From Nannochloropsis oceanica (Eukaryota > Sar > Eustigmatophyceae > Eustigmatales > Monodopsidaceae), in NCBI GenBank assembly GCA_004519485.1, contig CP038120.1, positions 581,578-645,577 on the forward strand: DNA of 64,000 nucleotides, written 5' to 3'. The position numbers and the translations under genes are program-made. The stretch's first letter is position 1; every line of letters starts with the position of its first letter. Under the pieces are notes generated by a model, which searched no databases, was not told the DNA's origin, and saw nothing but the letters and a program-made list of their open reading frames with translations. Positions 1 to 64,000 of this stretch are shown here, one piece after another.

Positions 1-53
1 TCCCTAACCAACCTCATCACGCATGCACGTGCCATGAGCCGCCTTCCTTGTCC

Positions 54-6000: not shown

Positions 6001-7971
6001 ATGTGGCTGAATGGAAGGGGGTGAGGATGGAGACCGGTCTCTTGAAAAGGGGGGGTGGAAAAGGGTAGAAACCTGCCTTTTGCAAAGCTGGGCCACTCGC
6101 TGGTTCTGATCCTGGGAGGGTCATAGGGAGGCCGAGAGCTCCTTCTCTCTCAATTTTCAGTAAAGTAATCAAGATAAAAACAAAAACAATCCTTTAAAGG
6201 AAAAACAACAGGTAATTTGAGCTTTCCAAGCGCGTTTCCCTCCAGACACACCTTACAACCCTCTTAGATCCCTAACCAACCTCATCACGCATGCACGTGC
6301 CATGAGCGGCCTTCCTTGTCCTCATACGCACAATGTGGCTGAATGGAAGGGGGTGTGGATGGAGACCGGTCTCTTGAAAAGGGGGGTTGGAAAAGGGTAG
6401 AAACCTGCCTTTTGCAAAGCTGGGCCACTCGCTGGTTCTGACCCTGGGAGGGTCATAGGGAGGCCGAGAGCTCCTTCTCTCTCAATTTTCAGTAAAGTAA
6501 TCAAGATAAAAACAAAAACAATCCTTTAAAGGAAAAACAACAGGTAATTTGAGCTTTCCAAGCGCATTTCCCTCCAGACACACATTACAACCCTCTTAGA
6601 TCCCTAACCCACATCATCACGCATGCACGTGCCATGAGCCGCCTTCCTTGTCCTCATACGCACAATGTGGCTGAATGGAAGGGGGTGTGGATGGAGACCG
6701 GTCTCTTGAAAAGGGGGGTTGGAAAAGGGTAGAAACCTGCCTTTTGCAAAGCTGGGCCACTCGCTGGTTCTGACCCTGGGAGGGTCATAGGGAGGCCGAG
6801 AGCTCCTTCTTTCTCAATTTTCAGTAAAGTAATCAAGATAAAAACAAAAACAATCCTTTAAAGGAAAAACAACAGGTAATTTGAGCTTTCCAAGCGCATT
6901 TCCCTCCAGACACACCTTACAACCCTCTTAGATCCCTAACCAACCTCATCACGCATGCACGTGCCATGAGCCGCCTTCCTTGTCCTCATACGCACAATGT
7001 GGCTGAATGGAAGGGGGTGTGGATGGAGACCGGTCTCTTGAAAAGGGGGGTTGGATAAGAGTAGAAACCTGCCTTTTGCAAAGCTGGGCCACTCGCTGGT
7101 TCTGATCCTGGGAGGGTCATAGGGAGGCCGAGAGCTCCTTCCTTCTCAATTTTCAGTAAAGTAATCAAGATAAAAACAAAAACAATCCTTTAAAGGAAAA
7201 ACAACAGGTAATTTGAGCTTTCCAAGCTCGTTTCCCTCCAGACACACCTTACAACCCTCTTAGATCCCTAACCAACCTCATCACGCATGCACGTGCCATG
7301 AGCCGCCTTCCTTGTCCTCATACGCACAATGTGGCTGAATGGAAGGGGGTGAGGATGGAGACCGGTCTCTTGAAAAGGGGGGGTGGATAAGAGTAGAAAC
7401 CTGCCTTTTGCAAAGCTGGGCCACTCGCTGGTTCTGATCCTGGGAGGGTCATAGGGAGGCCGAGAGCTCCTTCCTTCTCAATTTTCAGTAAAGTAATCAA
7501 GATAAAAACAAAAACAATCCTTTAAAGGAAAAACAACAGGTAATTTGAGCTTTCCAAGCGCATTTCCCTCCAGACACACCTTACAACCCTCCTAGATCCC
7601 TAACCAACCTCATCACGCATGCACGTGCCATGAGCGGCCTTCCTTGTCCTCACACGCACAATGGAAGGGGGTGAGGATGGAGACCGGTCTCTTGAAAAGG
7701 GGGTGTGGAAAAGGGTAGAAACCTGCCTTTTGCAAAGCTGGGCCACTCGCTGGTTCTGATCCTGGGAGGGTCATAGGGAGGCCGAGAGCTCCTTCTTTCT
7801 CAATTTTCAGTAAAGTAATCAAGATAAAAACAAAAACAATCCTTTAAAGGAAAAACAACAGGTAATTTGAGCTTTCCAAGCGCATTTCCCTCCAGACACA
7901 CCTTACAACCCTCTTAGATCCCTAACCAACCTCATCACGCATGCACGTGCCATGAGCCGCCTTCCTTGTCC
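54..7971. repeat. Higher-order repeat copy 1 (24 monomers, 7918 bp)
   Basis: Measured from one diagnostic monomer (with 'ccagtcgct') to the next identical one. 24 units, five of them short: 24 x 332 minus 5 x 10 = 7918 bp, which matches the observed spacing exactly. Monomers 1-6 and the last six match copy 2 in order and variant type; the middle is rearranged. The boundary is a chosen phase, not a biological end. Confidence 0.88.
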
Positions 7972-10900
7972 TCATACGCACAATGTGGCTGAATGGAAGG
8001 GGGTGTGGATGGAGACCGGTCTCTTGAAAAGGGGGGTTGGAAAAGGGTAGAAACCTGCCTTTTGCAAAGCTGGGCCAGTCGCTGGTTCTGATCCTGGGAG
8101 GGTCATAGGGAGGCCGAGAGCTCCTTCTTTCTCAATTTTCAGTAAAGTAATCAAGATAAAAACAAAAACAATCCTTTAAAGGAAAAACAACAGGTAATTT
8201 GAGCTTTCCAAGCGCATTTCCCTCCAGACACACCTTACAACCCTCCTAGATCCCTAACCAACCTCATCACGCATGCACGTGCCATGAGCCGCCTTCCTTG
8301 TCCTCATACGCACAATGTGGCTGAATGGAAGGGGGTGAGGATGGAGACCGGTCTCTTGAAAAGGGGGGGTGGATAAGAGTAGAAACCTGCCTTTTGCAAA
8401 GCTGGGCCACTCGCTGGTTCTGACCCTGGGAGGGTCATAGGGAGGCCGAGAGCTCCTTCTTTCTCAATTTTCAGTAAAGTAATCAAGATAAAAACAAAAA
8501 CAATCCTTTAAAGGAAAAACAACAGGTAATTTGAGCTTTCCAAGCGCGTTTCCCTCCAGACACACCTTACAACCCTCCTAGATCCCTAACCAACCTCATC
8601 ACGCATGCACGTGCCATGAGCCGCCTTCCTTGTCCTCATACGCACAATGTGGCTGAATGGAAGGGGGTGAGGATGGAGACCGGTCTCTTGAAAAGGGGGG
8701 TTGGAAAAGGGTAGAAACCTGCCTTTTGCAAAGCTGGGCCACTCGCTGGTTCTGATCCTGGGAGGGTCATAGGGAGGCCGAGAGCTCCTTCTTTCTCAAT
8801 TTTCAGTAAAGTAATCAAGATAAAAACAAAAACAATCCTTTAAAGGAAAAACAACAGGTAATTTGAGCTTTCCAAGCGCATTTCCCTCCAGACACACCTT
8901 ACAACCCTCTTAGATCCCTAACCAACCTCATCACGCATGCACGTGCCATGAGCCGCCTTCCTTATCCTCATACGCACAATGTGGCTGAATGGAAGGGGGT
9001 GTGGATGGAGACCGGTCTCTTGAAAAGGGGGGTTGGAAAAGGGTAGAAACCTGCCTTTTGCAAAGCTGGGCCACTCGCTGGTTCTGACCCTGGGAGGGTC
9101 ATAGGGAGGCCGAGAGCTCCTTCTTTCACAATTTTCAGTAAAGTAATCAAGATAAAAACAAAAACAATCCTTTAAAGGAAAAACAACAGGTAATTTGAGC
9201 TTTCCAAGCGCATTTCCCTCCAGACACACCTTACAACCCTCTTAGATCCCTAACCAACCTCATCACGCATGCACGTGCCATGAGCCGCCTTCCTTGTCCT
9301 CACACGCACAATGGAAGGGGGTGAGGATGGAGACCGGTCTCTTGAAAAGGGGGGGTGGAAAAGGGTAGAAACCTGCCTTTTGCAAAGCTGGGCCACTCGC
9401 TGGTTCTGATCCTGGGAGGGTCATAGGGAGGCCGAGAGCTCCTTCTTTCTCAATTTTCAGTAAAGTAATCAAGATAAAAACAAAAACAATCCTTTAAAGG
9501 AAAAACAACAGGTAATTTGAGCTTTCCAAGCGCATTTCCCTCCAGACACACCTTACAACCCTCTTAGATCCCTAACCAACCTCATCACGCATGCACGTGC
9601 CATGAGCCGCCTTCCTTGTCCTCATACGCACAATGTGGCTGAATGGAAGGGGGTGTGGATGGAGACCGGTCTCTTGAAAAGGGGGGTTGGAAAAGGGTAG
9701 AAACCTGCCTTTTGCAAAGCTGGGCCACTCGCTGGTTCTGACCCTGGGAGGGTCATAGGGAGGCCGAGAGCTCCTTCTTTCTCAATTTTCAGTAAAGTAA
9801 TCAAGATAAAAACAAAAACAATCCTTTAAAGGAAAAACAACAGGTAATTTGAGCTTTCCAAGCGCGTTTCCCTCCAGACACACCTTACAACCCTCCTAGA
9901 TCCTTTACCAACCTCATCACGCATGCACGTGCCATGAGCCGCCTTCCTTGTCCTCATACGCACAATGTGGCTGAATGGAAGGGGGTGAGGATGGAGACCG
10001 GTCTCTTGAAAAGGGGGGTTGGAAAAGGGTAGAAACCTGCCTTTTGCAAAGCTGGGCCACTCGCTGGTTCTGACCCTGGGAGGGTCATAGGGAGGCCGAG
10101 AGCTCCTTCATTCTCAATTTTCAGTAAAGTAATCAAGATAAAAACAAAAACAATCCTTTAAAGGAAAAACAACAGGTAATTTGAGCTTTCCAAGCGCATT
10201 TCCCTCCAGACACACCTTACAACCCTCCTAGATCCCTAACCAACCTCATCACGCATGCACGTGCCATGAGCCGCCTTCCTTGTCCTCATACGCACAATGT
10301 GGCTGAATGGAAGGGGGTGAGGATGGAGACCGGTCTCTTGAAAAGGGGGGGTGGAAAAGGGTAGAAACCTGCCTTTTGCAAAGCTGGGCCACTCGCTGGT
10401 TCTGATCCTGGGAGGGACATAGGGAGGCCGAGAGCTCCTTCTTTCTCAATTTTCAGTAAAGTAATCAAGATAAAAACAAAAACAATCCTTTAAAGGAAAA
10501 ACAACAGGTAATTTGAGCTTTCCAAGCGCATTTCCCTCCAGACACACCTTACAACCCTCTTAGATCCCTAACCAACCTCATCACGCATGCACGTGCCATG
10601 AGCCGCCTTCCTTGTCCTCACACGCACAATGGAAGGGGGTGAGGATGGAGACCGGTCTCTTGAAAAGGGGGGTTGGAAAAGGGTAGAAACCTGCCTTTTG
10701 CAAAGCTGGGCCACTCGCTGGTTCTGACCCTGGGAGGGTCATAGGGAGGCCGAGAGCTCCTTCCTTCTCAATTTTCAGTAAAGTAATCAAGATAAAAACA
10801 AAAACAATCCTTTAAAGGAAAAACAACAGGTAATTTGAGCTTTCCAAGCGCATTTCCCTCCAGACACACCTTACAACCCTCTTAGATCCCTAACCAACCT

Positions 10901-13900
10901 CATCACGCATGCACGTGCCATGAGCCGCCTTCCTTGTCCTCATACGCACAATGTGGCTGAATGGAAGGGGGTGAGGATGGAGACCGGTCTCTTGAAAAGG
11001 GGGGGTGGAAAAGGGTAGAAACCTGCCTTTTGCAAAGCTGGGCCACTCGCTGGTTCTGACCCTGGGAGGGTCATAGGGAGGCCGAGAGCTCCTTCTCTCT
11101 CAATTTTCAGTAAAGTAATCAAGATAAAAACAAAAACAATCCTTTAAAGGAAAAACAACAGGTAATTTGAGCTTTCCAAGCGCATTTCCCTCCAGACACA
11201 CCTTACAACCCTCTTAGATCCCTAACCAACCTCATCACGCATGCACGTGCCATGAGCGGCCTTCCTTGTCCTCACACGCACAATGGAAGGGGGTGAGGAT
11301 GGAGACCGGTCTCTTGAAAAGGGGGGTTGGAAAAGGGTAGAAACCTGCCTTTTGCAAAGCTGGGCCACTCGCTGGTTCTGACCCTGGGAGGGTCATAGGG
11401 AGGCCGAGAGCTCCTTCCTTCTCAATTTTCAGTAAAGTAATCAAGATAAAAACAAAAACAATCCTTTAAAGGAAAAACAACAGGTAATTTGAGCTTTCCA
11501 AGCGCATTTCCCTCCAGACACACCTTACAACCCTCTTAGATCCCTAACCAACCTCATCACGCATGCACGTGCCATGAGCCGCCTTCCTTGTCCTCATACG
11601 CACAATGTGGCTGAATGGAAGGGGGTGAGGATGGAGACCGGTCTCTTGAAAAGGGGGGGTGGAAAAGGGTAGAAACCTGCCTTTTGCAAAGCTGGGCCAC
11701 TCGCTGGTTCTGATCCTGGGAGGGACATAGGGAGGCCGAGAGCTCCTTCTTTCTCAATTTTCAGTAAAGTAATCAAGATAAAAACAAAAACAATCCTTTA
11801 AAGGAAAAACAACAGGTAATTTGAGCTTTCCAAGCGCATTTCCCTCCAGACACACCTTACAACCCTCTTAGATCCCTAACCAACCTCATCACGCATGCAC
11901 GTGCCATGAGCGGCCTTCCTTGTCCTCACACGCACAATGGAAGGGGGTGAGGATGGAGACCGGTCTCTTGAAAAGGGGGGTTGGAAAAGGGTAGAAACCT
12001 GCCTTTTGCAAAGCTGGGCCACTCGCTGGTTCTGACCCTGGGAGGGTCATAGGGAGGCCGAGAGCTCCTTCCTTCTCAATTTTCAGTAAAGTAATCAAAA
12101 TAAAAACAAAAACAATCCTTTAAAGGAAAAACAACAGGTAATTTGAGCTTTCCAAGCGCATTTCCCTCCAGACACACCTTACAACCCTCTTAGATCCCTA
12201 ACCAACCTCATCACGCATGCACGTGCCATGAGCCGCCTTCCTTGTCCTCATACGCACAATGTGGCTGAATGGAAGGGGGTGAGGATGGAGACCGGTCTCT
12301 TGAAAAGGGGGGTTGGAAAAGGGTAGAAACCTGCCTTTTGCAAAGCTGGGCCACTCGCTGGTTCTGACCCTGGGAGGGTCATAGGGAGGCCGAGAGCTCC
12401 TTCCATCTCAATTTTCAGTAAAGTAATCAAAATAAAAACAAAAACAATCCTTTAAAGGAAAAACAACAGGTAATTTGAGCTTTCCAAGCGCATTTCCCTC
12501 CAGACACACCTTACAACCCTCTTAGATCCCTAACCAACCTCATCACGCATGCACGTGCCATGAGCGGCCTTCCTTGTCCTCACACGCACAATGGAAGGGG
12601 GTGAGGATGGAGACCGGTCTCTTGAAAAGGGGGGTTGGAAAAGGGTAGAAACCTGCCTTTTGCAAAGCTGGGCCACTCGCTGGTTCTGATCCTGGGAGGG
12701 TCATAGGGAGGCCGAGAGCTCCTTCTTTCTCAATTTTCAGTAAAGTAATCAAGATAAAAACAAAAACAATCCTTTAAAGGAAAAACAACAGGTAATTTGA
12801 GCTTTCCAAGCGCATTTCCCTCCAGACACACCTTACAACCCTCTTAGATCCCTAACCAACCTCATCACGCATGCACGTGCCATGAGCGGCCTTCCTTGTC
12901 CTCACACGCACAATGGAAGGGGGTGAGGATGGAGACCGGTCTCTTGAAAAGGGGGGTTGGAAAAGGGTAGAAACCTGCCTTTTGCAAAGCTGGGCCACTC
13001 GCTGGTTCTGACCCTGGGAGGGTCATAGGGAGGCCGAGAGCTCCTTCCTTCTCAATTTTCAGTAAAGTAATCAAGATAAAAACAAAAACAATCCTTTAAA
13101 GGAAAAACAACAGGTAATTTGAGCTTTCCAAGCGCATTTCCCTCCAGACACACCTTACAACCCTCTTAGATCCCTAACCAACCTCATCACGCATGCACGT
13201 GCCATGAGCCGCCTTCCTTGTCCTCATACGCACAATGTGGCTGAATGGAAGGGGGTGAGGATGGAGACCGGTCTCTTGAAAAGGGGGGGTGGAAAAGGGT
13301 AGAAACCTGCCTTTTGCAAAGCTGGGCCACTCGCTGGTTCTGATCCTGGGAGGGTCATAGGGAGGCCGAGAGCTCCTTCTTTCTCAATTTTCAGTAAAGT
13401 AATCAAAATAAAAACAAAAACAATCCTTTAAAGGAAAAACAACAGGTAATTTGAGCTTTCCAAGCGCATTTCCCTCCAGACACACCTTACAACCCTCTTA
13501 GATCCCTAACCAACCTCATCACGCATGCACGTGCCATGAGCGGCCTTCCTTGTCCTCACACGCACAATGGAAGGGGGTGAGGATGGAGACCGGTCTCTTG
13601 AAAAGGGGGGTTGGAAAAGGGTAGAAACCTGCCTTTTGCAAAGCTGGGCCAGTCGCTGGTTCTGACCCTGGGAGGGTCATAGGGAGGCCGAGAGCTCCTT
13701 CCTTCTCAATTTTCAGTAAAGTAATCAAGATAAAAACAAAAACAATCCTTTAAAGGAAAAACAACAGGTAATTTGAGCTTTCCAAGCGCATTTCCCTCCA
13801 GACACACCTTACAACCCTCTTAGATCCCTAACCCACATCATCACGCATGCACGTGCCATGAGCCGCCTTCCTTGTCCTCATACGCACAATGTGGCTGAAT

Positions 13901-16192
13901 GGAAGGGGGTGTGGATGGAGACCGGTCTCTTGAAAAGGGGGGTTGGAAAAGGGTAGAAACCTGCCTTTTGCAAAGCTGGGCCACTCGCTGGTTCTGACCC
14001 TGGGAGGGTCATAGGGAGGCCGAGAGCTCCTTCTTTCTCAATTTTCAGTAAAGTAATCAAGATAAAAACAAAAACAATCCTTTAAAGGAAAAACAACAGG
14101 TAATTTGAGCTTTCCAAGCGCATTTCCCTCCAGACACACCTTACAACCCTCCTAGATCCCTAACCAACCTCATCACGCATGCACGTGCCATGAGCGGCCT
14201 TCCTTGTCCTCATACGCACAATGTGGCTGAATGGAAGGGGGTGAGGATGGAGACCGGTCTCTTGAAAAGGGGGGGGTGGAAAAGGGTAGAAACCTGCCTT
14301 TTGCAAAGCTGGGCCACTCGCTGGTTCTGATCCTGGGAGGGTCATAGGGAGGCCGAGAGCTCCTTCTCTCTCAATTTTCAGTAAAGTAATCAAGATAAAA
14401 ACAAAAACAATCCTTTAAAGGAAAAACAACAGGTAATTTGAGCTTTCCAAGCGCGTTTCCCTCCAGACACACCTTACAACCCTCTTAGATCCCTAACCAA
14501 CCTCATCACGCATGCACGTGCCATGAGCGGCCTTCCTTGTCCTCATACGCACAATGTGGCTGAATGGAAGGGGGTGTGGATGGAGACCGGTCTCTTGAAA
14601 AGGGGGGTTGGAAAAGGGTAGAAACCTGCCTTTTGCAAAGCTGGGCCACTCGCTGGTTCTGACCCTGGGAGGGTCATAGGGAGGCCGAGAGCTCCTTCTC
14701 TCTCAATTTTCAGTAAAGTAATCAAGATAAAAACAAAAACAATCCTTTAAAGGAAAAACAACAGGTAATTTGAGCTTTCCAAGCGCATTTCCCTCCAGAC
14801 ACACATTACAACCCTCTTAGATCCCTAACCCACATCATCACGCATGCACGTGCCATGAGCCGCCTTCCTTGTCCTCATACGCACAATGTGGCTGAATGGA
14901 AGGGGGTGTGGATGGAGACCGGTCTCTTGAAAAGGGGGGTTGGAAAAGGGTAGAAACCTGCCTTTTGCAAAGCTGGGCCACTCGCTGGTTCTGACCCTGG
15001 GAGGGTCATAGGGAGGCCGAGAGCTCCTTCTTTCTCAATTTTCAGTAAAGTAATCAAGATAAAAACAAAAACAATCCTTTAAAGGAAAAACAACAGGTAA
15101 TTTGAGCTTTCCAAGCGCATTTCCCTCCAGACACACCTTACAACCCTCTTAGATCCCTAACCAACCTCATCACGCATGCACGTGCCATGAGCCGCCTTCC
15201 TTGTCCTCATACGCACAATGTGGCTGAATGGAAGGGGGTGTGGATGGAGACCGGTCTCTTGAAAAGGGGGGTTGGATAAGAGTAGAAACCTGCCTTTTGC
15301 AAAGCTGGGCCACTCGCTGGTTCTGATCCTGGGAGGGTCATAGGGAGGCCGAGAGCTCCTTCCTTCTCAATTTTCAGTAAAGTAATCAAGATAAAAACAA
15401 AAACAATCCTTTAAAGGAAAAACAACAGGTAATTTGAGCTTTCCAAGCTCGTTTCCCTCCAGACACACCTTACAACCCTCTTAGATCCCTAACCAACCTC
15501 ATCACGCATGCACGTGCCATGAGCCGCCTTCCTTGTCCTCATACGCACAATGTGGCTGAATGGAAGGGGGTGTGGATGGAGACCGGTCTCTTGAAAAGGG
15601 GGGGTGGATAAGAGTAGAAACCTGCCTTTTGCAAAGCTGGGCCACTCGCTGGTTCTGATCCTGGGAGGGTCATAGGGAGGCCGAGAGCTCCTTCCTTCTC
15701 AATTTTCAGTAAAGTAATCAAGATAAAAACAAAAACAATCCTTTAAAGGAAAAACAACAGGTAATTTGAGCTTTCCAAGCGCATTTCCCTCCAGACACAC
15801 CTTACAACCCTCCTAGATCCCTAACCAACCTCATCACGCATGCACGTGCCATGAGCGGCCTTCCTTGTCCTCACACGCACAATGGAAGGGGGTGAGGATG
15901 GAGACCGGTCTCTTGAAAAGGGGGTGTGGAAAAGGGTAGAAACCTGCCTTTTGCAAAGCTGGGCCACTCGCTGGTTCTGATCCTGGGAGGGTCATAGGGA
16001 GGCCGAGAGCTCCTTCTTTCTCAATTTTCAGTAAAGTAATCAAGATAAAAACAAAAACAATCCTTTAAAGGAAAAACAACAGGTAATTTGAGCTTTCCAA
16101 GCGCATTTCCCTCCAGACACACCTTACAACCCTCTTAGATCCCTAACCAACCTCATCACGCATGCACGTGCCATGAGCCGCCTTCCTTGTCC
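7972..16192. repeat. Higher-order repeat copy 2 (25 monomers, 8221 bp)
   Basis: 25 units, eight short, plus a one-base insertion in the G-run near 14275: 25 x 332 - 80 + 1 = 8221 bp, as observed. The left part (monomers 1-6) and the right part (14160-16192) repeat copy 1 closely, including the rare 'gggggtgtggaa' and 'tggataagagt' variants. The central block is enriched in short monomers compared with copy 1. Confidence 0.88.
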
Positions 16193-18553
16193 TCATACGC
16201 ACAATGTGGCTGAATGGAAGGGGGTGTGGATGGAGACCGGTCTCTTGAAAAGGGGGGTTGGAAAAGGGTAGAAACCTGCCTTTTGCAAAGCTGGGCCAGT
16301 CGCTGGTTCTGATCCTGGGAGGGTCATAGGGAGGCCGAGAGCTCCTTCTTTCTCAATTTTCAGTAAAGTAATCAAGATAAAAACAAAAACAATCCTTTAA
16401 AGGAAAAACAACAGGTAATTTGAGCTTTCCAAGCGCATTTCCCTCCAGACACACCTTACAACCCTCCTAGATCCCTAACCAACCTCATCACGCATGCACG
16501 TGCCATGAGCCGCCTTCCTTGTCCTCATACGCACAATGTGGCTGAATGGAAGGGGGTGAGGATGGAGACCGGTCTCTTGAAAAGGGGGGGTGGATAAGAG
16601 TAGAAACCTGCCTTTTGCAAAGCTGGGCCACTCGCTGGTTCTGATCCTGGGAGGGTCATAGGGAGGCCGAGAGCTCCTTCTTTCTCAATTTTCAGTAAAG
16701 TAATCAAGATAAAAACAAAAACAATCCTTTAAAGGAAAAACAACAGGTAATTTGAGCTTTCCAAGCGCGTTTCCCTCCAGACACACCTTACAACCCTCCT
16801 AGATCCCTAACCAACCTCATCACGCATGCACGTGCCATGAGCCGCCTTCCTTGTCCTCATACGCACAATGTGGCTGAATGGAAGGGGGTGAGGATGGAGA
16901 CCGGTCTCTTGAAAAGGGGGGTTGGAAAAGGGTAGAAACCTGCCTTTTGCAAAGCTGGGCCACTCGCTGGTTCTGATCCTGGGAGGGTCATAGGGAGGCC
17001 GAGAGCTCCTTCTTCCTCAATTTTCAGTAAAGTAATCAAGATAAAAACAAAAACAATCCTTTAAAGGAAAAACAACAGGTAATTTGAGCTTTCCAAGCGC
17101 ATTTCCCTCCAGACACACCTTACAACCCTCCTAGATCCCTAACCAACCTCATCACGCATGCACGTGCCATGAGCCGCCTTCCTTGTCCTCATACGCACAA
17201 TGTGGCTGAATGGAAGGGGGTGTGGATGGAGACCGGTCTCTTGAAAAGGGGGGTTGGAAAAGGGTAGAAACCTGCCTTTTGCAAAGCTGGGCCACTCGCT
17301 GGTTCTGACCCTGGGAGGGTCATAGGGAGGCCGAGAGCTCCTTCTTTCACAATTTTCAGTAAAGTAATCAAGATAAAAACAAAAACAATCCTTTAAAGGA
17401 AAAACAACAGGTAATTTGAGCTTTCCAAGCGCATTTCCCTCCAGACACACCTTACAACCCTCTTAGATCCCTAACCAACCTCATCACGCATGCACGTGCC
17501 ATGAGCGGCCTTCCTTGTCCTCATACGCACAATGTGGCTGAATGGAAGGGGGTGAGGATGGAGACCGGTCTCTTGAAAAGGGGGGTTGGAAAAGGGTAGA
17601 AACCTGCCTTTTGCAAAGCTGGGCCACTCGCTGGTTCTGACCCTGGGAGGGTCATAGGGAGGCCGAGAGCTCCTTCTTTCTCAATTTTCAGTAAAGTAAT
17701 CAAGATAAAAACAAAAACAATCCTTTAAAGGAAAAACAACAGGTAATTTGAGCTTTCCAAGCGCATTTCCCTCCAGACACACCTTACAACCCTCCTAGAA
17801 CCCTAACCAACCTCATCACGCATGCACGTGCCATGAGCCGCCTTCCTTGTCCTCATACGCACAATGTGGCTGAATGGAAGGGGGCGAGGATGGAGACCGG
17901 TCTCTTGAAAAGGGGGGGTGGAAAAGGGTAGAAACCTGCCTTTTGCAAAGCTGGGCCACTCGCTGGTTCTGATCCTGGGAGGGTCATAGGGAGGCCGAGA
18001 GCTCCGTCTTTCTCAATTTTCAGTAAAGTAATCAAGATAAAAACAAAAACAATCCTTTAAAGGAAAAACAACAGGTAATTTGAGCTTTCCAAGCGCATTT
18101 CCCTCCAGACACACCTTACAACCCTCCTAGATCCCTAACCAACCTCATCACGCATGCACGTGCCATGAGCCGCCTTCCTTGTCCTCATACGCACAATGTG
18201 GCTGAATGGAAGGGGGTGAGGATGGAGACCGGTCTCTTGAAAAGGGGGGTTGGAAAAGGGTAGAAACCTGCCTTTTGCAAAGCTGGGCCACTCGCTGGTT
18301 CTGACCCTGGGAGGGTCATAGGGAGGCCGAGAGCTCCTTCTTTCTCAATTTTCAGTAAAGTAATCAAGATAAAAACAAAAACAATCCTTTAAAGGAAAAA
18401 CAACAGGTAATTTGAGCTTTCCAAGCGCATTTCCCTCCAGACACACCTTACAACCCTCCTAGAACCCTAACCAACCTCATCACGCATGCACGTGCCATGA
18501 GCGGCCTTCCTTGTCCTCATACGCACAATGTGGCTGAATGGAAGGGGGTGCAT
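16193..18553. repeat. Higher-order repeat copy 3 (partial, about 7 monomers)
   Basis: Begins with the same diagnostic monomer series as copies 1 and 2 (16193, 16525, 16857, 17189), then departs from them (17521, 17853, 18185) and stops inside a monomer at about 18550. Two units here have 'agaaccctaacc' in place of 'agatccctaacc', making the telomere-like string longer. This is the proximal edge of the array. Confidence 0.85.
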
Positions 18554-18934
18554 GCACGTGCCATCGGCCACTTTCGCTGCTGTTATGCTCCTTTTTCAGC
18601 TGAGAAGAACGGCTGGTGATATCAACTTCTTTGTGCGAGTTCATTAATATGGGGAAACTTTCATCTTGTATGGCTGCGTTTCCTGCTTTTAAGGTCGGTT
18701 GCTGACAACGAATGTTTGGGATGAATGGAAAGAAGTGCACACCCTCTAGTATTTATACAAAAAAATGTTGCGATGCAAACATAAAAGATTATCGAAGAAT
18801 TCTTGACACGCATACGCACGTCTTGCCCTATGGTCACCTCCTGACAACTTTTGTCCTCGACTTGCCTATCTTCGCTTAACGCTGTGTGCGAATGTTTTGA
18901 TTGAGACACCAAGCCCCAAATGAAGAGAGACGAT
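18554..18934. other. Array junction, no gene recognised
   Basis: Directly after the last truncated monomer the monomer-start string 'gcatgcacgtgccat' appears once more (about 18549-18564) and then gives way to unique sequence. I see no convincing coding exon, RNA gene or TATA element here. Confidence 0.5.
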
Positions 18935-20030
18935 GTTGACCCCGAGGCTTTTTCCTTCATTCTATGTCCCTCCTGTTATCTCCTGCAGACGTTACACGAT
19001 TCAGTCGGCGGCTTGTGCAACGGCTAGACATTCAGTTATTCCTCCCTCTTCGTCTTTATTGCATTAGTTAGTGTCCATAGTTTTATGTCTCTGCAACAAC
19101 CAGTGGAGAAAGAGGAAAATAGTGTCCTGTTGTGTGTATGCTCACTAGCTTGACACGACTCTCGCAACACACTTCATGGTCGGGGCAATGAATCAAGCGC
19201 CGCTCCTAGCATCCTCCCGATTTTACTTCTCTTTGCTTTTTGCGTTTGCTTGTTGTTCCTGCACGCACATCATCTAGCACTATCAACAGTTGCAGTAGAA
19301 AATAAAGAGATAGTACTGTCACTACATGACACACAGGCCAAGGGAGAAGTTTGTCTGTGATCCTGGTGCTCTTTCCGGGAGCCCCTACAGTAACACACGC
19401 ATCGACACCTGCACACGATTCTCATCACTGACATTCCCTCCGATCCCGCATTCACCCTTTTTATTCAGTTGCTACTTCCTGACCGAAGACAGACGGTTTT
19501 GACCCCGAGGCGTTACTTCCTTCCCTCCGTCGTTGTCAGTCCTGTTATCTCCTGCAGACGTTACACGATTCAGTCGGCGGCTTGTGCAACGGCTAGACAT
19601 TCAGTTATTCTTTCTCTTCGTCTTTACTGCGTTGACGTCCATGGTTGTATGCCTTTGCAATAACCAGTGGAAAGAGAAAAGCTATTGTATTGTAAATCAG
19701 TGTGCATGCTTTCTCGCCTTCCACAACTCCCGTAGCACACTACATGGTCGGGGCAATGAATCGAGCCCAACTGCTAGCGCCCTACACGAGTGTGAAACTG
19801 ATTTCACTTCTCTTTGTCGTTTGCGTTTTTGCTTGTTGCTCCTGCACGCACAACAGCTAGCTCTATCATCAGCAGCATTCGCAGCAGTAGCAGCAATACT
19901 TTCACGACACGACAGGCAGGCCAAGGGGGAGGGTGTTTCTGGTCCGGTCCTGGTCCTCGTCCCGCGAGCGCCTCCACCAGCACACGCATCGACACCAGCA
20001 CACGACTCCTGTAATTGACACTCCGTCTCA
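18935..20030. repeat. Tandem duplication of a ~560-bp block upstream of the GH6 gene
   Basis: Copy A (about 18935-19460) and copy B (about 19498-20030) can be aligned along their length by eye. Both begin with 'ttgaccccgaggc', share 'cctgttatctcctgcagacg' and the following 'ttacacgattcagtcggcgg', 'catggtcggggcaatgaatc', 'gcacgcacaaca/catcatctagc' and 'cacacgcatcgacacc'. Divergence is substantial, with many substitutions and small indels, so the duplication is not recent. Copy B lies just upstream of the cellulase start and probably contains part of its promoter or 5' UTR. ORFs in it are not conserved between the two copies, so coding is unlikely. Confidence 0.85.
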
Positions 20031-20125: not shown

Positions 20126-23100
20126 ATGCCTCGTCTTTTTCACCCTGCTGCCGCCACGGCCGCTGTGCTCGCCTCCATGCTCCTCTCCTCCTTCACTTCC
20201 GTCCAGGCAGCAATCAAGACGCAGAACATGCGTGGCATGGCTGTCACCAGCACGGGCAAGCCTAGGGGCACCAACATTTTTAAGGGTAAGGAAGGAGGGA
20301 AAGAGGGAGGATATGGAACAGGGGCAAGCAGGGGAGTGTTGCCCTGTGTACGTGTCGAGAGGGACCCATAAGATGTAATAAGAATATCCATGAGAGCGAT
20401 AGTTGCAGCAGTCTTGTGAGGAAAAGGTGAGGGTGGTGGTGGTGCGCTGGCGGGAGTCACATACTGAACAACTCAAACAGCCACAGGGAGTGTCTCCGTC
20501 TTCCCCTTTCCCTTTCATTTTCCGTCTTCCCCGCCCTTCTACTCTCCCTCCCTTCCTCTTCCTCGATCCACCAGAATGTGTAATCGCACTCATTCCCCTC
20601 TCTTCCTCCCTCCCTGCCTCCCTAGGCGCGGACATGTACGTCAACCCCTACTTCCAAGAGGAGCTCGACTCCTCCATTGCCACGGCCTCGGGGGAAGTCA
20701 AGGTAGGGAGGGAGGGAGGGAGGGAGGGAGGGAGGGAGGGACAGTTTCCCTCTTCAAGTTTTACCCTTCTGGACGCACGTCACTTACTTCCCTTCCCTCC
20801 CTCCCTCCCTCCCTCCAACAGAAAACCCTGAAGTCGATCCGCGGCCTCTCTTCCGCGTATTGGTTGGACGTCAAAAGCAAGGTACGGAAGGGAGGGAGGG
20901 AATGGGAGAAATGGATATTTTGCCCCCTCGATACAATCATTTGATGTAGATTGATTGTACCCGTACTCATTCCCTCCCTCCCTCCCTCCCTTCCTCCCTC
21001 CCCTCCCCTCCTCTCTCAGGTCCACCGCGCCGACGGCCCGGGTGATGATTTTTTTTCTATGGAAGGCATTCTTGAGGATGCGGCTTCCAAGAACCCTCCC
21101 CCCGCCACTACTTTTATCGTCTACGACTTGCCCAATCGGTACGTCGTGCCCTCCCTCCCTCCCTCCCTCCCTCCCCCCCTCCCTCCTCCCCGTTTTCCCT
21201 ATTTGGTGTGTCGTCCTGGATCCCATCTTTCCATCTTTGAGCGACTCTCTCACTTTGACACCTCGCTTTAAACGCCCTTAACGCCTCTAACGATGGCATC
21301 TGCTGCATGTCCCTGCCCGACGACCGCTCCCTCAACTCGCATATGTTTCCCTCCCTCCCTCCCTCAGCGACTGCCACGCTCATGCCTCCAACGGCGAGAT
21401 CTGCTGCACCTACCTCCCTGACGGCCGCTGCGACTACCAGGCGGAGGGAGATTGCAAAGAGGGCATTCAGACGTACAAGAAGCAGTACATTGATCCCATT
21501 GTCCAGGTACCTCCCTCCCTCCTCCCTCCCTCCTCCCTCCCTCCCTCCCTCCCTCCATCTTTCCCCCCCCTCTATGTGTGTGTGTCTTATTTTTTCCCGC
21601 CTTCCTTATTGTCCCCTCCCTTCCCCTAACCCTCCTCCTCTCTCCCTTCTCTCTCACCAGCGTGTCCGCCTCCGGAGCCCGCCCTCCACTCTGAAACCCA
21701 CATCTCCCACATACTTCCCTCCACCCCCCTCCCCCCCTCCCTCCCTCCCTCAGGTCCTGAAGAAGTTCCAGGGGAAGGTTCCCATCGCCCTCGTCATCGA
21801 GCCTGACTCTCTTCCCAATCTGGCCACTAACCTCGGAGACCCCCGCTGCGGCTCTAAGGTACACCCTCCCTCCCTCCCTCCCTCCGTTCCGTTTCCAAGC
21901 CCTCCCATTCCCCACAATACAATCGCATTCACTTTCCTTTTCTCTTCTTCCTCCCTCTCTCGCTCTTTCCAGGCTACCGTGAACGCCTACGAGCAAGGCG
22001 TGGCCTACGCCGTCGAACAGATCGGAACCCATGTAAGGAAGGAGGGAGGGAGGGAGGGTAAGAAGTAATGTGATCACCGTGTGTCGGTACTCACACTCTT
22101 CCTGTCCTTTCCTAACTCATCCCTTCCCTCCCTCCCTCCCTCTCCTCCTCCCCAAGGCCCCGGACGTGATGATGTACCTCGACTCCTCCCACGGCGGCTG
22201 GCTGGGCTGGGAGCACTCGCTCATGGACTACCTGGCCATCCTCGAGAAGATCAACGTCGTACGTCCCTCCCTCCCTCCCTCCTCGCCTGCCTGACGTTTA
22301 CTTGCTTGCCTTCCCTCCCTCCCTCCCTCCCTCCCTCCCTCCCTTGTCCTGCATTTCCCCCCACTACAACTCGAATCCACACTCCCTCCCTCCTTCCCTC
22401 CCTCCCTCCTTCCCTCCCTCCCCCCAGGCCAAGCACGTCCGCGGCTTTGCCCTCAACACGGCCAATTATCAGCCCGTCGGGGAAATGTGCCCCTTCTGGG
22501 ATTATTGCCTCGGGGGGAAGAACGTCAACGCCACGTACGGCCCTCCCTCCCTCTTTCCCTCCCTCCTGTATTCGACTCATGTCTAATCGCTTCTTCGGCG
22601 GGCGTAGATTTATATGGTCCCTCCCTCCCTCCCTCCCTTCCTTCCTCCCTCCAGAACCTCCTTCCTTCCCTGCCTTTTCCGAAATCCTCGAGGCATCATT
22701 CTGACCATCTCCCTCCCTCCCTCCTCCCAGGTGTTGCGCGGACCCGTGCAAGCTGGCGCAGCAGTACAACGCAGGGAACAACGAGATGAACTTTGCCCTG
22801 ATGATGCACAATAAGACCACCGGCATGTGGCCCTCCTTCGAGCCGCGCTTCGTCATCGACACGGGCCGCAACGGGCAGGTAGGGAGGGAGGGAGGGAGGG
22901 AGGGAGGGAGTAAGCACAAGCATATGGACATGGGCCGCTGTATCACACATGGGTATTACCACCAGAATAAGTGTCCTCCAGAACGTACACTCAACCACCT
23001 TCCCTCCCTCCCTCCCGCCCTCCCTAGTCCGGCATGCGCGAGTCTTGCTCCAACTGGTGCAACATCCGCGGGGCTGGTATTGGGCACCGCCCCACCACCG

Positions 23101-24075
23101 ACACAGTACGTTTCCTCCCACCCCTCCTTCTCTCCCCCTTCCTTCTCTCCCTCCTTCTCTCCCTCCCTCTCTCCCTCTTTCCTTCCATCCCTCCTTCCCT
23201 CCCTCCCTCCTTGCCTCATCCTGCCTTTTTTGACCCGGCATTTCCCACGTAGCTTAATCTCATCTTCTTATTGTAATCATTTTGATTAGCTGTAAACCTT
23301 ACTTAAACCTAATTACTTTGACTTATACAACACCTATCTTCTCACGCAGGGCTCGCCGTTGGTGGACGCCTTCCTGTGGCTCAAGACCCCCGGGGAGTCG
23401 GACGGGTGCACGCAGGTACGTGAGTAGAAGGAGGAAGGTTTTGTGCGCAAGAGGGTGCGTGAATGATAATGAATGATAGTGCTGCTTTCAGAGCACTCCC
23501 TCTCTATGTACATATGTAATACGGGCCGGCCTCTGTTTGGTCCCGGGCGTGTGGATGGATGGGCGAATGTATGTGTCGTGTGTCCGCGGGGTTGTTGCGC
23601 GGGTGTCTGTCTCTGTCCCTCTCTCTACCGCGTGTGAGTTTTTCTATGTATGTACTTGTACCGATATACATATGTACATATATCCGTTCAACGAGGCGTA
23701 AAGGGACGCTCCCCACTCACATCTTCCTCACTCCCTCCCTCCCTCCTTCCCGCTTAGATCTTGCCGGGCCCGGATAAGACGCAGTGCCCTCGTTTTGACT
23801 CCATGTGCATGTCCCCCGACTCCATTGGCTCCCTTGAGATGGATCCGCGCGCGCCCGAGGCCGGCCTTTGGTTCGACTACCAGGTATGCTGCTAAGGAGG
23901 GAGGGAGGGATGGAAGGCGGAAGAAGCGGGTGCGGAGGATTAAATTTGGTCGTCCACGATTGAGGATCAGGTGATGTTACGCGACAGCTGACACTCTTTC
24001 TCTCGCTCTCTCCCTCCCTCGGCTCATCCACAACAGATCAAGGAGCTGGCCGCCAATGCCAACCTGGACGGTTAA
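20126..24075 (+). CDS. Secreted glycoside hydrolase family 6 (cellobiohydrolase/endoglucanase), 14 exons
   Basis: Predicted to hydrolyse beta-1,4-glucan outside the cell or in the secretory pathway. Exons by hand: 20126-20285, 20626-20702, 20822-20881, 21020-21138, 21368-21506, 21754-21858, 21973-22032, 22157-22258, 22428-22534, 22731-22878, 23028-23105, 23350-23415, 23758-23883, 24037-24075; all GT-AG, in frame, 461 aa. Residues 1 to about 28 are a signal peptide. GH6 landmarks appear in order: DLPNRDCHAHASNGE (Asp140), VIEPDSLPNL (Asp203), SSHGGWLGWE, LNTANYQP, FVIDTGRNGQ, and PGESDG (Asp403). In GH6 the Asp residues of the first two motifs are the catalytic pair. There is no carbohydrate-binding module or linker, and length fits a single catalytic domain. 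Nearly every intron contains (GGGA)n or (TCCC)n. Cello- versus endo-mode cannot be read from sequence. Confidence 0.93.
21280..21338 (+). pseudogene. Decayed copy of GH6 exon 5 inside intron 4
   Basis: Translates as NASNDGICCMSLPDDRS, against NGEICCTYLPDGRCD in the true exon 5 at 21368. No AG acceptor lies immediately before it and no GT donor after it, and keeping it would break the GH6 motif. It sits upstream of the exon it copies, separated by a TCCC tract. Confidence 0.75.
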
Positions 24076-29628: not shown

Positions 29629-33175
<3,547 letters not shown>

Positions 33176-54157: not shown

Positions 54158-57100
54158 CTAATCACTATCATCCCCAAGCGCCGCAAATGCATTTCCGGGC
54201 TTTTTCCCTCCTCCTCCTCCTCCTCCTCCTCCTCCCCCTCCTCCGCCCCTCCCTCCCCCCTTCCCTCCCACGCTGGCCCATCCGCCCCCACTGGTGCTCT
54301 TCGTTGCGCCTCCTGTCTTCTTGGCCGGTTCGCCCTTGTAACCTGCCAACGCCTGAGGGAGGGAGGGATGGGTGATGGAACGATGGGAGGGATCGGGAGC
54401 AGGGAGAAGAAAGGAGGGGAGAAGGGAAGGAGGGAGGGAGGGAGGGAGGGAGCATGGGAGGGAAAGAGGGATAGAGGGAGGGAGGGAGGGAGGGAGGGAG
54501 GGAGGGAGGGAGGGAGGGAGGGAAGAAACGGCCTACCTTTCTCTTGCTGGCCTTGGCCCGATCTTGCACCTCTTCGTCACTCTCGAAGAAGCCTTTGGAC
54601 TCCTCCACCAGGGCGGCGATCTGAGGGAGGGAGGGAGGGAGGGAGGGGCGGTTTGTGAAGCGTATAGCTTGAGAAGATTTACTGTTCGCTTGTCTCCTTC
54701 CCTCTTTCCGTCCTTCCCTCATCACCTCCCCCGTAAGAAATGCGTCCAGTCCACCGCCCCTCCTCCACTGATCCCATCTCTCCCCCCCTCCCTCCCTCCC
54801 TCTCCCCCTTCCTCCGTCCCTCCCTCCCTCCCTCCCTACCTGCTCCTCCAGGCGGTCTATTTCCGAGAATTTCTTCACCTCTGCCACCGACAAGAGACGA
54901 CCTTTGATCCCATCCCTCTCCTTGCTCAGGAGGGCGTGCTTGCGGAAGAGGGGCTTGAGCTCGGCCTGAGGGAGGGAGGGGTGAGTATTGAGGCAACGCT
55001 TGGAATTTAATCCTTCCTCCACCCTCCTCGCTCTCCTGTCCTCCTGCTCTCCTTCCCTCCTTTCCTCCCTCTTTTTGCCTTCATCGTGATTTTGATCTTC
55101 CCGAGCGCGTCATTCTGAAACTCATATTCCCCACACACCCATGCACTTTATTTCGGACCTCCTCCCTCCCTCCCTCCCTCCCTCCCTCCCTCCCTTCCTC
55201 CCTCCCTCCCTCCCTCCCTCCCTCACCTCCCGCTTCAAATTGTGCACCATAATGGCGATCTGGACGGCCTTCTCCTTTCGCTCCCTTAGCGTCTTGATCT
55301 GCTCCTCCAGCTTCAGGACCTGAGGAAGGAGGGAGGGAGGGAGGGAGGGAGGGAGGGAGGGGCGATCAAACCTATACGCGATAAATATTCTTAACTCTTC
55401 TTTTTTTTCCCTCCTTCCCTCCCTCCATCCCTCCATCCCTTCCTTCCTCACCTTCTTCTCCTTCCCTGCCTCTTTCGCATCCGCCTTCTCCTTCTCCAGC
55501 CCATCAATCCTGCCCTCCATCTGCTGCAGCAGCCGCTCCTTATCCGCTTTGGTCAGCTGCCCCTTGTCCACTTGGGCCTGCGGGAGGGAGGGAGGGAGGG
55601 AGGGAGGGAGGGAGGGAGGGGAAGGGATTCGAGGGTAAAATAAGGTGTTTGGGAAGCACATGGGAGATGTGGGCGTCGGAATAGCATGACGGGCTCGACG
55701 AGGTAAGAGCATGATGGGGAGGGAAGGGAGGGAGGGAAGGAAGGAGAAACGGAGGATGGAAGGAAGAGAGGGAGGGAGGGAGGGAGGGAGGGAGGGAGGG
55801 AGGGAGGGAGGGAGGGCGTACCTTCATGGCCTGACTAGTCCACTCTGCTTTTTCCTTTAGCTGACTGGCACTCAGTTCCTCGTAGAGAGCACTCTCGCTG
55901 TCCGACAGCTGTTCCCCGCGCATCATCTTGGCCTAGAGCAGAAGGGAGGGAGGAAGGGGGGAAAGGGTGGGAGGAAGGGAGGGAGGGAGGGAGGGAGGGA
56001 GGGAGGAGAGATCAGCGCTAACTGACCCGCAGAGGCTTACATCCTCGCAATCAAGAGGAAGAGAGGGAGGGAGGGAGGGAGGGAGGGAGAGAGGGAGGGA
56101 GGGAGAGAGGGAGGGAGGGAGGGAGGGCGTACGTACCTCGATGGATTCAAAGGCTTCCTGTAGCGGCAGGAGCAAATCTTTGAGACCCCGTTGCTTCTGC
56201 GACCAGGAGGGACATTTGGAGGTCATCATGTCGGGAAATACGGCCATCTGAGGGAGGGAGGGAGGGAGGGAGGGAGGGAGGGAGGGAGGGGGTGGAGGAC
56301 TGGCAATCGGAAAGCATAGTGTCGGAAAAGACGGCCATCCGAGGGAGAGAGGAGGGACGGAGGGAGGGGAGGGAGAGAGGAGGGACGGAGGGAGGGAAGG
56401 AGGGAGGGACGGAGGGAGGAAGGGGAAAAGCAGCGTACCGAGATGGAAACGATCATGTCCCGCTCTTTTCCTGTCACAGTCGCTTCATTGAACCCTCCTG
56501 CTGCTCCTGCTGCTCCCCCTTCGTTCTCCTTCTCAGGTTCCTGTCGTTTAGGTGGGAGAGAGAGGGAGGGAGGGAGGGGAGGGAGGGAGGGAGGGGAGGG
56601 AGGGAGGGAGGGAGGGGAGGGAGGAAGAGGAGAACAAGAGGGAGGGAGGCAAGGAATTGAAAGACGAAATTGAGCACACGGGGATGAGAACTCAACAGAT
56701 GGACTGATTGTCGGGTGCATCCCTTCCTCCCTCCCTCCCTCCCTCCCTCCCTCTTTCCCTACCTCTCCTGGCCCCCCGGCGCCCGCGATAAGGGGGAAGA
56801 CGACGATGGACTTAAGGTTTTTGCCTATTTGTTTTTTGAGAGAGAAAAACGGGGGGCGAAGGAGGGAAGGAGAGGGACAGGGGAGTCATGCATTCGCAGA
56901 AGCCATGTCCAGCGCTGCAGGGGCAGAGAAGGGGAGGGAGGAAAGATAGGAAGGGGGTGTGGGCAGGGAGGGAGGACGGTACGGCAGGGAGAACAGGGAG
57001 GAAGGGAGGGAGGTAGGGAGGGAGGGAGGGAGGGAGGGACGTACCCGTGTCATGGTGAAATTTGAAACATCCAGCGGATGCGAGGTCATTGGCAGCCGAC

Positions 57101-57879
57101 TTGTCCTCAATAAAATTGATACCCTTCAGAGCATTAGAGCACCATTTCTGATGGAGGAGGGAGAAAAAGACAAAGATGAGATAAAACAAATATCACATAT
57201 CTTTCTCATTCGATAGCAGTCTCGCATATATTTTTGATGGGCCTTCCTTTCCCTCCCTTCCCCCTCTCTCCCTCTTTCAATATCACCCTCGCGTTCTTGT
57301 GTGAGTGGCCTTTCTTTCCCTTCCTTTTCTCCTTCCTCCGTCTTTCAGTATCACCCTCGCGTTCTTGTGTGAGTGGCCTCTCTTTCTCTCCCTCTCCCTC
57401 CTCCTCTCTCTCCCTCTTACCGGCATGCTATCGTCGTAACGGGCCCTGACGCCTTTCCCCCCTCCTACCACAAAGGTCAGTCGCACCATTTCCGTCAGGT
57501 TCTCGAAAGGGGTGGCGAAGGCACTAGACAGAATATGTGTGACCTGTTACAGAGGATGAGAATGTGAAATACGTCTACCGCAGCGGCATGCCTACCGCCC
57601 CTCCCTCAAGCCCTACCTTCTTCCAGCCCTTGCCTCCCCTCTACTTACTTGCGCCTCGTTCAAGCCACCCAAGTCAAAGGTCTCGGCATCGACCGCGGCT
57701 CTATTTGTATATGAGGTGGACGCACATGAGTGCACATGAGTGAGCTGGACGACGATGATCACGACCTTGCTATCTACCCGCTTGCCGTCCCCTCCTTCCT
57801 CCCCTCCCTCTCTCCCTGAAGCAGGCAAGACGTACCGGACGTGCTTCACGAGGGAATGATGCTGTTGCTCTTCCGCCAT
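54158..57879 (-). CDS. Conserved-looking coiled-coil protein of unknown function, 14 exons
   Basis: Exons (minus): 57836-57879, 57649-57700, 57421-57543, 57045-57147, 56763-56824, 56439-56540, 56137-56247, 55822-55932, 55452-55577, 55227-55319, 55079-55114, 54840-54965, 54537-54620, 54158-54352; 455 aa. The N-terminal third looks globular (MVRLTFVVGGGKGVRARYDD, KWCSNALKGINFIEDKSAA, CFKFHHDTGKNLKSIVVFP). The middle is helical with long coiled coils (ERLLQQMEGRIDGLEKEKAD; KLEEQIKTLRERKEKA). The tail is Gly-rich and ends KKPGNAFAALGDDSD. Exon 11 appears to use a GC donor (AAG|GCAAAA). I do not recognise the family; no signal peptide or membrane helix. Introns here are mostly polypyrimidine from donor to acceptor on the coding strand. 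Confidence 0.8.
54420..54525. repeat. Long (GGGA)n tract
   Basis: A good example of the intronic simple repeat found throughout 20 kb onward; other long runs are at 45196-45260, 48369-48420, 55767-55815 and 56248-56289. It falls inside an intron of the coiled-coil gene, where the transcript carries (TCCC)n. Confidence 0.9.
56291..56339 (-). pseudogene. Decayed copy of exon 7 start in the coiled-coil gene
   Basis: Minus-strand translation MAVFSDTMLSDCQSST, against MAVFPDMMTSKCPSWS in the real exon 7 (56137-56247). It lies upstream of that exon in transcript order and the AG acceptor is mutated (gg before atg). Confidence 0.75.
57281..57416. repeat. 68-bp direct repeat in intron 3 of the coiled-coil gene
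   Basis: The string 'tatcaccctcgcgttcttgt' followed by 'gtgagtggcc' occurs at 57281 and 57349, with pyrimidine-rich sequence after each copy. Confidence 0.85.
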
Positions 57880-62893: not shown

Positions 62894-64000
62894 TTGGCAA
62901 CGACGAGCAAACTTGTATATCCACGAAGCATGGAAGAAGATAAACCGCGACAGCCAGCGTTACAGCTTGGGCCCCCGCCCTGCAGGCCCTTATTTGCTGC
63001 TGCAGCAGCAGCAGCAGCCAGATTGTCATCCTGCCCATCTCCTTCCTCTTCAACAGAAGCTCCAGGAGCTGTAGTGGCCCCATGGTTAAATGTCGGCCAG
63101 AGTTTCCATGCGGACGAAGGGGTGGTGGCCCTGAGACGGTAAGAAGGGAGGGAGGGAGAGGGGGGGGAGGGAGCATGAGGCGCTGCAAGTCAGCGAGTGG
63201 TGACGTGAGACATCAATTTTTAATGGCATTTGTTTTCCCCTATACACAGGCAAAGAGAAGATGGAGAAGAGGCAGAAGAAAGGGTGCGCGACGGGCACCG
63301 TAGGGACAAGAGGAAGAGGAGGAAGAGGGAGAGGGAACAGAAGGAGGAGGAGGAGGTGGAGGAGGGTGGGGAAAGAAATGTAAGAAAAAGGAAAAAGAAG
63401 GACAAGAAGAAGAGAAAAGAGGAAAAGGAAAAGAGGAAACCAGCTCGTTTCCTGCTCGATCAAGGCCGAGAGAGAGGGAGGGAAGGAGGGAGGGAGGGAG
63501 GGAATACGCATCTTGCTACCCATGACCATCCTCCCCCCCTTGCTGCTCCTCTACCTTCGCCTTCCTTGCCATCTTCCTCCTTGTTTGTGGAGGACAGAAG
63601 GAGAGACGAGGACGTGAGGCGGCTGCGACAGATGTACTCGCACGACATGCCTTTGTTCCGGAGGCCCGGGTAAGGGAGGGAGGGAGGGCGGGAGGGAGGG
63701 AGGGAGGGAGGGAGGGAGCGAGGAGGGGGGGAGGGGGCTGCAGCAGATGGACTCGCACGGCTTTCTTTCTGCCGGGCTGAAATGACGGACGGCAGGAGGG
63801 AGGGAAGGAGGGGGACACTTTGGCGCAATATTTTCATTCACTTTCTTCCCTTCCTACCTCCTTCCCTCCCTTCCTCCCTCCCTCCCTGGGATCCCTTTTA
63901 TTTAGGACTGAGGAAGGAGCCGCCCGCTCTCTGATTGGGAAAGATCTCTTGTCTTTTTCTCAGCTTTCCTGCGTGTGGAAAAAATTGGTCAGCAGGTACG
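62894..64000 (+). CDS. NRDE2-like protein, 5' part only (runs off the window)
   Basis: Exons: 62894-63138, 63250-63669, 63906-63995, continuing beyond the edge (the last exon ends at a GT donor, AG|GTACG). Features in order: an Ala tract; VAPWLNVGQSFHADEG, like the early W-L-x-N-x-S-F motif of NRDE2; a long Lys/Arg/Glu-rich region (about residues 82-150); then DVRRLRQMYSHDMPLFRR, like the family's 'LY..D...Y.R' motif. NRDE2 proteins are nuclear and act in RNA surveillance and small-RNA silencing with exosome cofactors, with a C-terminal HAT-repeat region that would lie outside this window. The assignment rests on two short motifs and composition. ATG 62930 is an alternative start in the same frame. 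Confidence 0.5.

What the first reader, a model, noticed from the sequence alone, without database searches (positions are those of the whole stretch)
21280..21506. Exon echo in the GH6 gene: a decayed copy of exon 5 beside the real one
Intron 4 carries 59 bp that translate like the start of the next exon (NASNDGICCMSLPDDR versus NGEICCTYLPDGR) but lack splice sites. Three other genes in the window show the same arrangement: a copy of exon sequence beside its original, divided from it by a (TCCC)n tract. That suggests the simple repeats promote local duplication of exon edges, a possible source of alternative exons and relics.
Basis: seen in the sequence. Interest (0 to 1): 0.72.

Follow-up and report, generated by a model that had tools for sequence, protein, structure and literature searches.

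The report
Decayed exon-edge copies inside algal introns
In a cellulase gene of the alga Nannochloropsis oceanica, an intron holds a decayed copy of the start of the next exon; such copies are several times commoner than expected in the genes sampled, and most likely are harmless leftovers of small tandem duplications across the splice site rather than products shown to depend on the TCCC repeats.

Summary
The echo is real. In intron 4 of a 14-exon GH6 cellulase gene, 21272-21328 matches exon 5 at 21376-21429: local score 49, maximum 39 in 5,000 shuffles. I predicted gene models (196 introns) in the window and 19 loci of the same genome, which matches Nannochloropsis oceanica. Introns resemble the edges of their own flanking exons about seven times more often than controls: 10 of 392 intron-edge pairs at score 20 or more, 1.4-1.5 expected. 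Outside the window it was 6 of 190, 0.5-0.9 expected. Two clear cases include the splice-site region: a minus-strand gene (56296-56338, acceptor AG read as GG) and a helicase gene (L037, AG intact). Best reading: tandem duplications of about 91-115 bp across an exon-intron border; the copy joined to the exon stays in use, the other decays silently in the intron. The tract between copies is then part of the copied splice site. That TCCC tracts promote this is not supported: 7 of 292 pairs in tract introns, 3 of 100 in others (p 0.72), with low power. Intronic exon duplicates are a known class. Separately, the tracts are strand-polarised within introns, and the places listed lie mostly towards contig ends.

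The parts
20126..24075 (+). GH6 (cellobiohydrolase-like) gene, 14 exons; no second copy found in this genome
   Evidence: Pfam PF01341 E 2.6e-75; PDB GH6 matches, best 6.1e-54; all 13 genome matches listed lie in this gene; the gene finder gives the same exons as the hand model of the first 13
21139..21367 (+). intron 4 of the GH6 gene
   Evidence: GT..AG, phase consistent with exons 4 and 5
21272..21328 (+). echo: decayed copy of the start of exon 5
   Evidence: score 49, maximum of 5,000 shuffles 39; masked score 37, highest of 392 pairs
21240..21246 (+). possible remnant of the copied acceptor and first exon bases (AGCGACT)
   Evidence: read in the sequence; inference, short
21348..21367 (+). 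(TCCC)4 tract plus TCAG acceptor between echo and exon 5
   Evidence: sequence
21368..21506 (+). exon 5; source copy of the echo at 21376-21429
56296..56338 (-). second clear echo, in intron 5 (56248-56438) of a minus-strand gene; acceptor AG of the copy reads GG
   Evidence: 55-base alignment including the acceptor, score 54 unmasked; masked score 28, 18 with the stricter mask
56205..56247 (-). start of exon 6 of the same gene, the source copy; copy offset 91
63716..63808 (+). probable echo of an upstream exon end with donor and AGGG tract, in a weak gene model (62930-63911)
   Evidence: alignment score 71, inflated by the tract; masked score 27, 21 strict; no Pfam match for the predicted protein
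30575..30583 (+). nine exon-start-like bases in an intron of the GH5 gene, preceded by GG instead of AG
   Evidence: alignment score 29 including tract bases; not significant alone
22924..22938 (+). weak echo of the end of GH6 exon 10 (22855-22869), after an AGGG tract in intron 10
   Evidence: score 20
20319..20334 (+). weak echo of the end of GH6 exon 1 (20251-20268) in intron 1
   Evidence: score 20

Best explanation
A short tandem duplication (about 91-115 bp) copied a stretch reaching from the intron's splice-site region (tract plus AG, or GT plus tract) into the edge of the adjoining exon. The copy still joined to the rest of the exon keeps the original reading frame if its splice site is used, so the duplication does not change the protein. 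The outer copy falls inside the intron, its splice site is lost or ignored, and it decays. The GH6 echo is one such relic. Shown: the similarity, and its excess for adjacent exons over four kinds of control. Shown in two clear cases and one in a weak gene model: the splice-site region is part of the copy. Inferred: the duplication step, the neutrality, that the outer copy is not used, and that copies favour the exon edge (not formally tested).
For: GH6 echo beyond all 5,000 shuffles. Own adjacent exons: 10 of 392 at score 20 or more, against 1.50 expected from non-adjacent exons of the same gene (17 of 4,452), 1.40 from other genes (42 of 11,760), 1 of 392 for reversed and 0 of 392 for reverse-complemented own exons. 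Among genes scoring 100 or more: 9 of 306 against 0.9-1.2; without GH6 intron 4, 8 of 304 against 1.0-1.1; outside the window only, 6 of 190 against 0.5-0.9. The copies include the splice-site region in the minus-strand gene, in L037 intron 14 (AG intact; score 61 unmasked, partly from pyrimidine-rich bases) and in the 63.7 kb case. Copy offsets 101, 91, 115 and 97. Use of the upstream AG in L037 would add 97 nt and shift the frame.
Against: Gene models are my own predictions without RNA evidence. Only four cases are strong; one rests on a weak model, and the GH6 copy itself shows at most a 7-base trace of the acceptor. One reversed-exon control pair of 392 scores 24 or more, and one same-gene (of 4,452) and one other-gene (of 11,760) control pair score 26 or more, so single hits at that level can be chance. 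At score 16 the excess is small (22 of 392 against 13; 15 reversed). The exon edges compared were cut at 80 bases, so edge preference was not tested; a window profile found hits only within 60 bases of the edge, but five of its six are GH6 intron 4 or single others. No relative genome could show the state before duplication. Of the three hits without tracts, two are doubtful: a CAA-rich exon (L020) and a doubtful exon (L037 intron 22).
Confidence: 0.65

Rival explanations
1. One reading: (TCCC)n/(GGGA)n tracts cause the duplications, by slippage or unequal exchange between the intronic tract and short tract-like runs in the exon.
For: The four best cases lie in tract introns. In the minus-strand gene the copy ends at an exon-internal TCCCTCCT, and in the 63.7 kb case it starts at a purine-rich run. 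Near direct repeats: 18 hits in 45.9 kb unmasked of the four tract-rich sequences, 11 in 120.6 kb of the other 16; many hits stem from the same repeat and I made no test.
Against: No excess in tract introns: 7 of 292 against 3 of 100 pairs, p 0.72; 4 of 146 against 0 of 50 introns, p 0.57. The GH6 copy runs past the TCCCT within exon 5 and ends at no clear tract run. A tract between copies is expected because it is part of the splice-site region.
Confidence: 0.22
2. Relics of intron gain by tandem duplication of an exonic AGGT segment (the Rogers model).
For: That model also leaves exon-like sequence inside introns; a boundary-crossing duplication with intron gain is documented in potato (PMC4974935, abstract and Results section read).
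Against: It predicts that the intron's first bases resemble the start of the next exon and its last bases the end of the previous one. Matches over 20 anchored bases in 158 introns: 5.37 against 5.44 (sd 0.14) shuffled, and 5.96 against 6.05 (sd 0.13). The strong echoes lie inside the intron, not at its ends.
Confidence: 0.05
3. The echo is a working alternative exon or exon extension.
For: The GH6 echo reads open for 15 codons, with 0, 5 and 6 mismatches at codon positions 1, 2 and 3; the L037 copy has an intact AG.
Against: No splice sites adjoin the GH6 echo; from the nearest AG (21240-21241) the exon frame runs into a stop (read by eye); GG instead of AG in the minus-strand gene; the L037 extension is 97 nt, not a multiple of three. 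No RNA data either way.
Confidence: 0.05
4. Chance or composition-driven similarity.
For: Introns and exons here are rich in simple sequence; unmasked alignments are dominated by tract matches, with controls reaching 56. A few control pairs score as high as some claimed hits.
Against: Masked tests with non-adjacent, reversed, reverse-complemented and other-gene controls, and shuffles for GH6. Many short hits near score 20 may still be chance.
Confidence: 0.03

Closest known systems
Intronic and partial exon duplications (Exonize classification, PMC12343006; abstract and passages read)
   Same: A copy of part of an exon lies in an intron of the same gene and may be a degenerate exon; the paper reports partial, inter-boundary and intronic events in significantly more genes than full-exon duplications.
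   Different: Here the clear copies hold about 15-55 exon bases from the edge facing the intron, with the splice-site region in two clear cases. The tool was not run here.
Boundary-crossing tandem duplication in the potato RdRp gene (PMC4974935; abstract and Results section read)
   Same: The duplicated block spans the 3' part of an intron and the 5' part of the next exon, including polypyrimidine tract and AG.
   Different: In potato the duplication made a new intron and added exonic sequence; here the outer copy appears simply absorbed by the existing intron.
Drosophila novel introns by regional tandem duplication (PMC2891723; abstract and one section read)
   Same: Local tandem duplication of coding sequence and intronization of one copy.
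   Different: There new intron positions arise at proto-splice sites; here intron positions appear unchanged (no orthologues seen).

Membership tests
Intronic partial exon duplication | sequence in an intron derived from an exon of the same gene | tested here: met
   no second GH6 copy found
Intronic partial exon duplication | copy not part of the mature transcript | not testable with these tools
   no RNA data; absence of splice sites only suggests it
Boundary-spanning tandem duplication | direct orientation, same gene, copies about 100 bp apart, splice-site region included | tested here: inconclusive
   met in the minus-strand gene and L037 intron 14; for GH6 orientation and spacing met, but only a 7-base acceptor trace
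Intron gain by AGGT tandem duplication (Rogers model) | intron start resembles next exon start and intron end resembles previous exon end | tested here: not met
   158 introns, no excess
Tandem exon duplication with mutually exclusive splicing | second full exon with both splice sites | tested here: not met
   the clear copies cover only exon edges; no usual donor at the GH6 echo

The most novel reading that the evidence does not exclude
The end compartments of N. oceanica chromosomes hold intron-rich genes whose introns carry strand-polarised tetranucleotide tracts, and in them splice-site-spanning duplications act as a quiet ratchet that keeps lengthening introns with exon-edge copies, the tracts being both splice signals and duplication breakpoints.
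Probability: 0.15. Interest if true: 0.6.

Novelty: new member of a known kind. Interest (0 to 1): 0.36.

Why it matters
Exon-edge copies that include the splice site can be fixed without changing the protein, so they offer a simple route by which introns lengthen and by which cryptic splice sites arise beside real ones. At roughly 8-9 excess pairs in 196 predicted introns they would affect a few per cent of introns in these genes. The wider value is a caution for gene annotation, and a testable case for whether simple repeats seed such duplications.

Tried and rejected
Paralogue source for the echo: none found (the search scores only best candidates, exon by exon). Unmasked scoring of exon edges: abandoned because low-complexity matches dominate it (10 of 324 pairs at 36 or more, 4.2 expected; one search was a failed run of the same script). 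Window self-comparison by blastn: of the 12 near pairs, six direct, the GH6 echo was the only intron-exon pair within one gene. Ungapped near repeats: I compared only the window and L037 hits with gene models; L037 3896/3993 was a second intron-exon pair, and L037 6110/6152 falls almost wholly in a doubtful exon. A profile of 24-base exon windows by distance from the edge gave six hits in all, four of them GH6 intron 4. A pattern for TCCC directly after GT showed no excess (530 against 526).

Literature searches on Nannochloropsis with intron and genome, polypyrimidine (none), simple sequence repeat (3 papers) and subtelomere (2 papers), on exon duplication relics and on intron gain showed no report of these echoes or of TCCC introns in the titles and abstracts listed. 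The word TCCC occurs in neither PMC6610115 nor PMC3499364 (passages seen). The library is open-access only. PMC11782384 was seen as abstract only.

Dropped before counting: loci L017-L019, returned wholly as N; the satellite at the window start (masked), gene models scoring under 100 and introns beside exons under 15 bases. One search uses a looser mask and exon stretches up to 200 bases; one search uses a stricter mask and 80 bases. Two named cases score lower under the stricter mask (28 to 18, 27 to 21), so the minus-strand case is not among the 10 pairs.

Full report
Where it is. The window is the end of a 645,577-base contig in a genome of 29,264,788 bases and 32 contigs. Contig C1, 1,670,642 bases, equals the longest pseudochromosome in Table 1 of the N. 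oceanica assembly paper, which reports 32 pseudochromosomes and a total of 29,303,273 bases, slightly more than held here (PMC6610115, passages read). I take the organism to be Nannochloropsis oceanica.

The gene. The GH6 gene at 20126-24075 has 14 exons by a small gene finder that I wrote; the first 13 agree with a hand model. The 449-residue translation of those 13 exons matches Pfam Glyco_hydro_6 at 2.6e-75 and GH6 cellobiohydrolases of the PDB. All 13 genome matches listed for the protein lie in this gene, so no paralogous source of the echo was found.

The echo. Intron 4 (21139-21367) holds at 21272-21328 a sequence that aligns with exon 5 positions 21376-21429. Its score of 49 exceeds all 5,000 dinucleotide shuffles. 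The core of 46 bases has 11 mismatches: none at first, 5 at second and 6 at third codon positions. The copy lacks an adjoining AG and any usual donor. The nearest AG upstream is followed by CGACT, as in exon 5; I read this as a possible remnant of the copied acceptor.

Is it general? In the window plus 19 loci the gene finder gave 60 genes and 196 introns, 146 of them with a tract of three or more perfect units. The loci were 14 fixed positions, three further ones and two chosen for tract density, so the sample is not random. With low-complexity sequence masked, each intron was compared with the adjoining 80 bases of its two flanking exons. At score 20 or more there were 10 of 392 pairs; expectation was 1.50 from non-adjacent exons of the same gene (17 of 4,452) and 1.40 from other genes (42 of 11,760), with 1 of 392 for reversed and 0 of 392 for reverse-complemented own exons (Poisson 2e-6 to 4e-6). 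At 24 or more it was 4 of 392 against 0.07-0.26, with one reversed pair. At 16 it was 22 against about 13, with 15 reversed. Restricting to genes scoring 100 or more gave 9 of 306 against 0.9-1.2; leaving out the discovery case, 8 of 304 against 1.0-1.1; only loci outside the window, 6 of 190 against 0.5-0.9; only the window without the discovery case, 2 of 114 against 0-0.3. The excess is specific to adjacent exons and seen in an independent sample, but rests on few events.

Anatomy of the best cases. In the minus-strand gene (54158-57879; no Pfam match) intron 5 holds a 55-base match that includes the acceptor region; AG reads GG in the copy, and the match ends where the exon has TCCCTCCT. 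In L037, a helicase gene by Pfam, intron 14 repeats the pyrimidine-rich acceptor, AG and about 15 exon bases. In the 63.7 kb model the match runs from a purine-rich part of the exon through its end and donor into the AGGG tract, but that gene model is weak. Offsets between copies are 101 (GH6), 91, 97 and 115.

Mechanism. A tandem duplication across an exon-intron border leaves the exon-joined copy able to make the original mRNA. The outer copy lies in the intron and is free to decay. This explains why copies come from adjacent exons, why the splice-site region is copied too in the clear cases, and why a tract stands between them. It needs no special role for the tract. The sample is too small to exclude a moderate effect (my judgement), and tract-like sequence at the exon-side end in two cases keeps the idea open. 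The classical intron-gain model by AGGT duplication predicts similarity at the intron ends; none was found in 158 introns.

Relation to the literature. Intronic and partial exon duplicates are a recognised class (PMC12343006, abstract and passages). Tandem duplications crossing or making intron borders are documented in potato and Drosophila (PMC4974935, PMC2891723; abstracts and one section each). The present case is a further member, in a stramenopile alga. The searches named in Tried and rejected listed no report of it for Nannochloropsis.

Limits. The gene models are predictions; the gene finder's intron model was first trained on GH6 introns, which favours tract-bearing introns and makes the tract-in-intron counts partly circular. 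No RNA data or related genomes were available. Scores near 20 include chance hits.

Noticed in passing
window 20126-63911 and loci L020-L038; patterns genome-wide: Tetranucleotide tracts are concentrated in predicted introns and strand-polarised: 281 of 321 tracts in the sample lie in introns; (AGGG)3+ occurs in the 5' half of 59 of 196 introns and the 3' half of 4, (TCCC)3+ in the 3' half of 106 and the 5' half of 52, TCCC-5'/AGGG-3' in none; 38 have AGGG-5'/TCCC-3' and could pair as a hairpin (partly circular, see Limits). Genome-wide, TCCCx4-TCAG occurs 360 times against 18 for the reversed pattern and GTA-(GGGA)4 590 against 360.
   Followed up: partly
This suggests intron-rich terminal compartments.
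   Followed up: partly
window 18922-19440 and 19485-20027: Old tandem duplication of about 0.5 kb (72% identity) ending 99 bases upstream of the GH6 start codon, possibly a promoter duplication.
   Followed up: no
window 1-18550: Satellite array of a 332-base unit, about 56 copies at 96% match, ending 1.6 kb before the GH6 start codon.
   Followed up: no
L037 2986-3095: Three copies of a roughly 27-base sequence at the acceptor end of one predicted intron, another local duplication at a splice site.
   Followed up: no
window 58741-59035: Three exact tandem copies of a 98-base unit, presumably recent.
   Followed up: no
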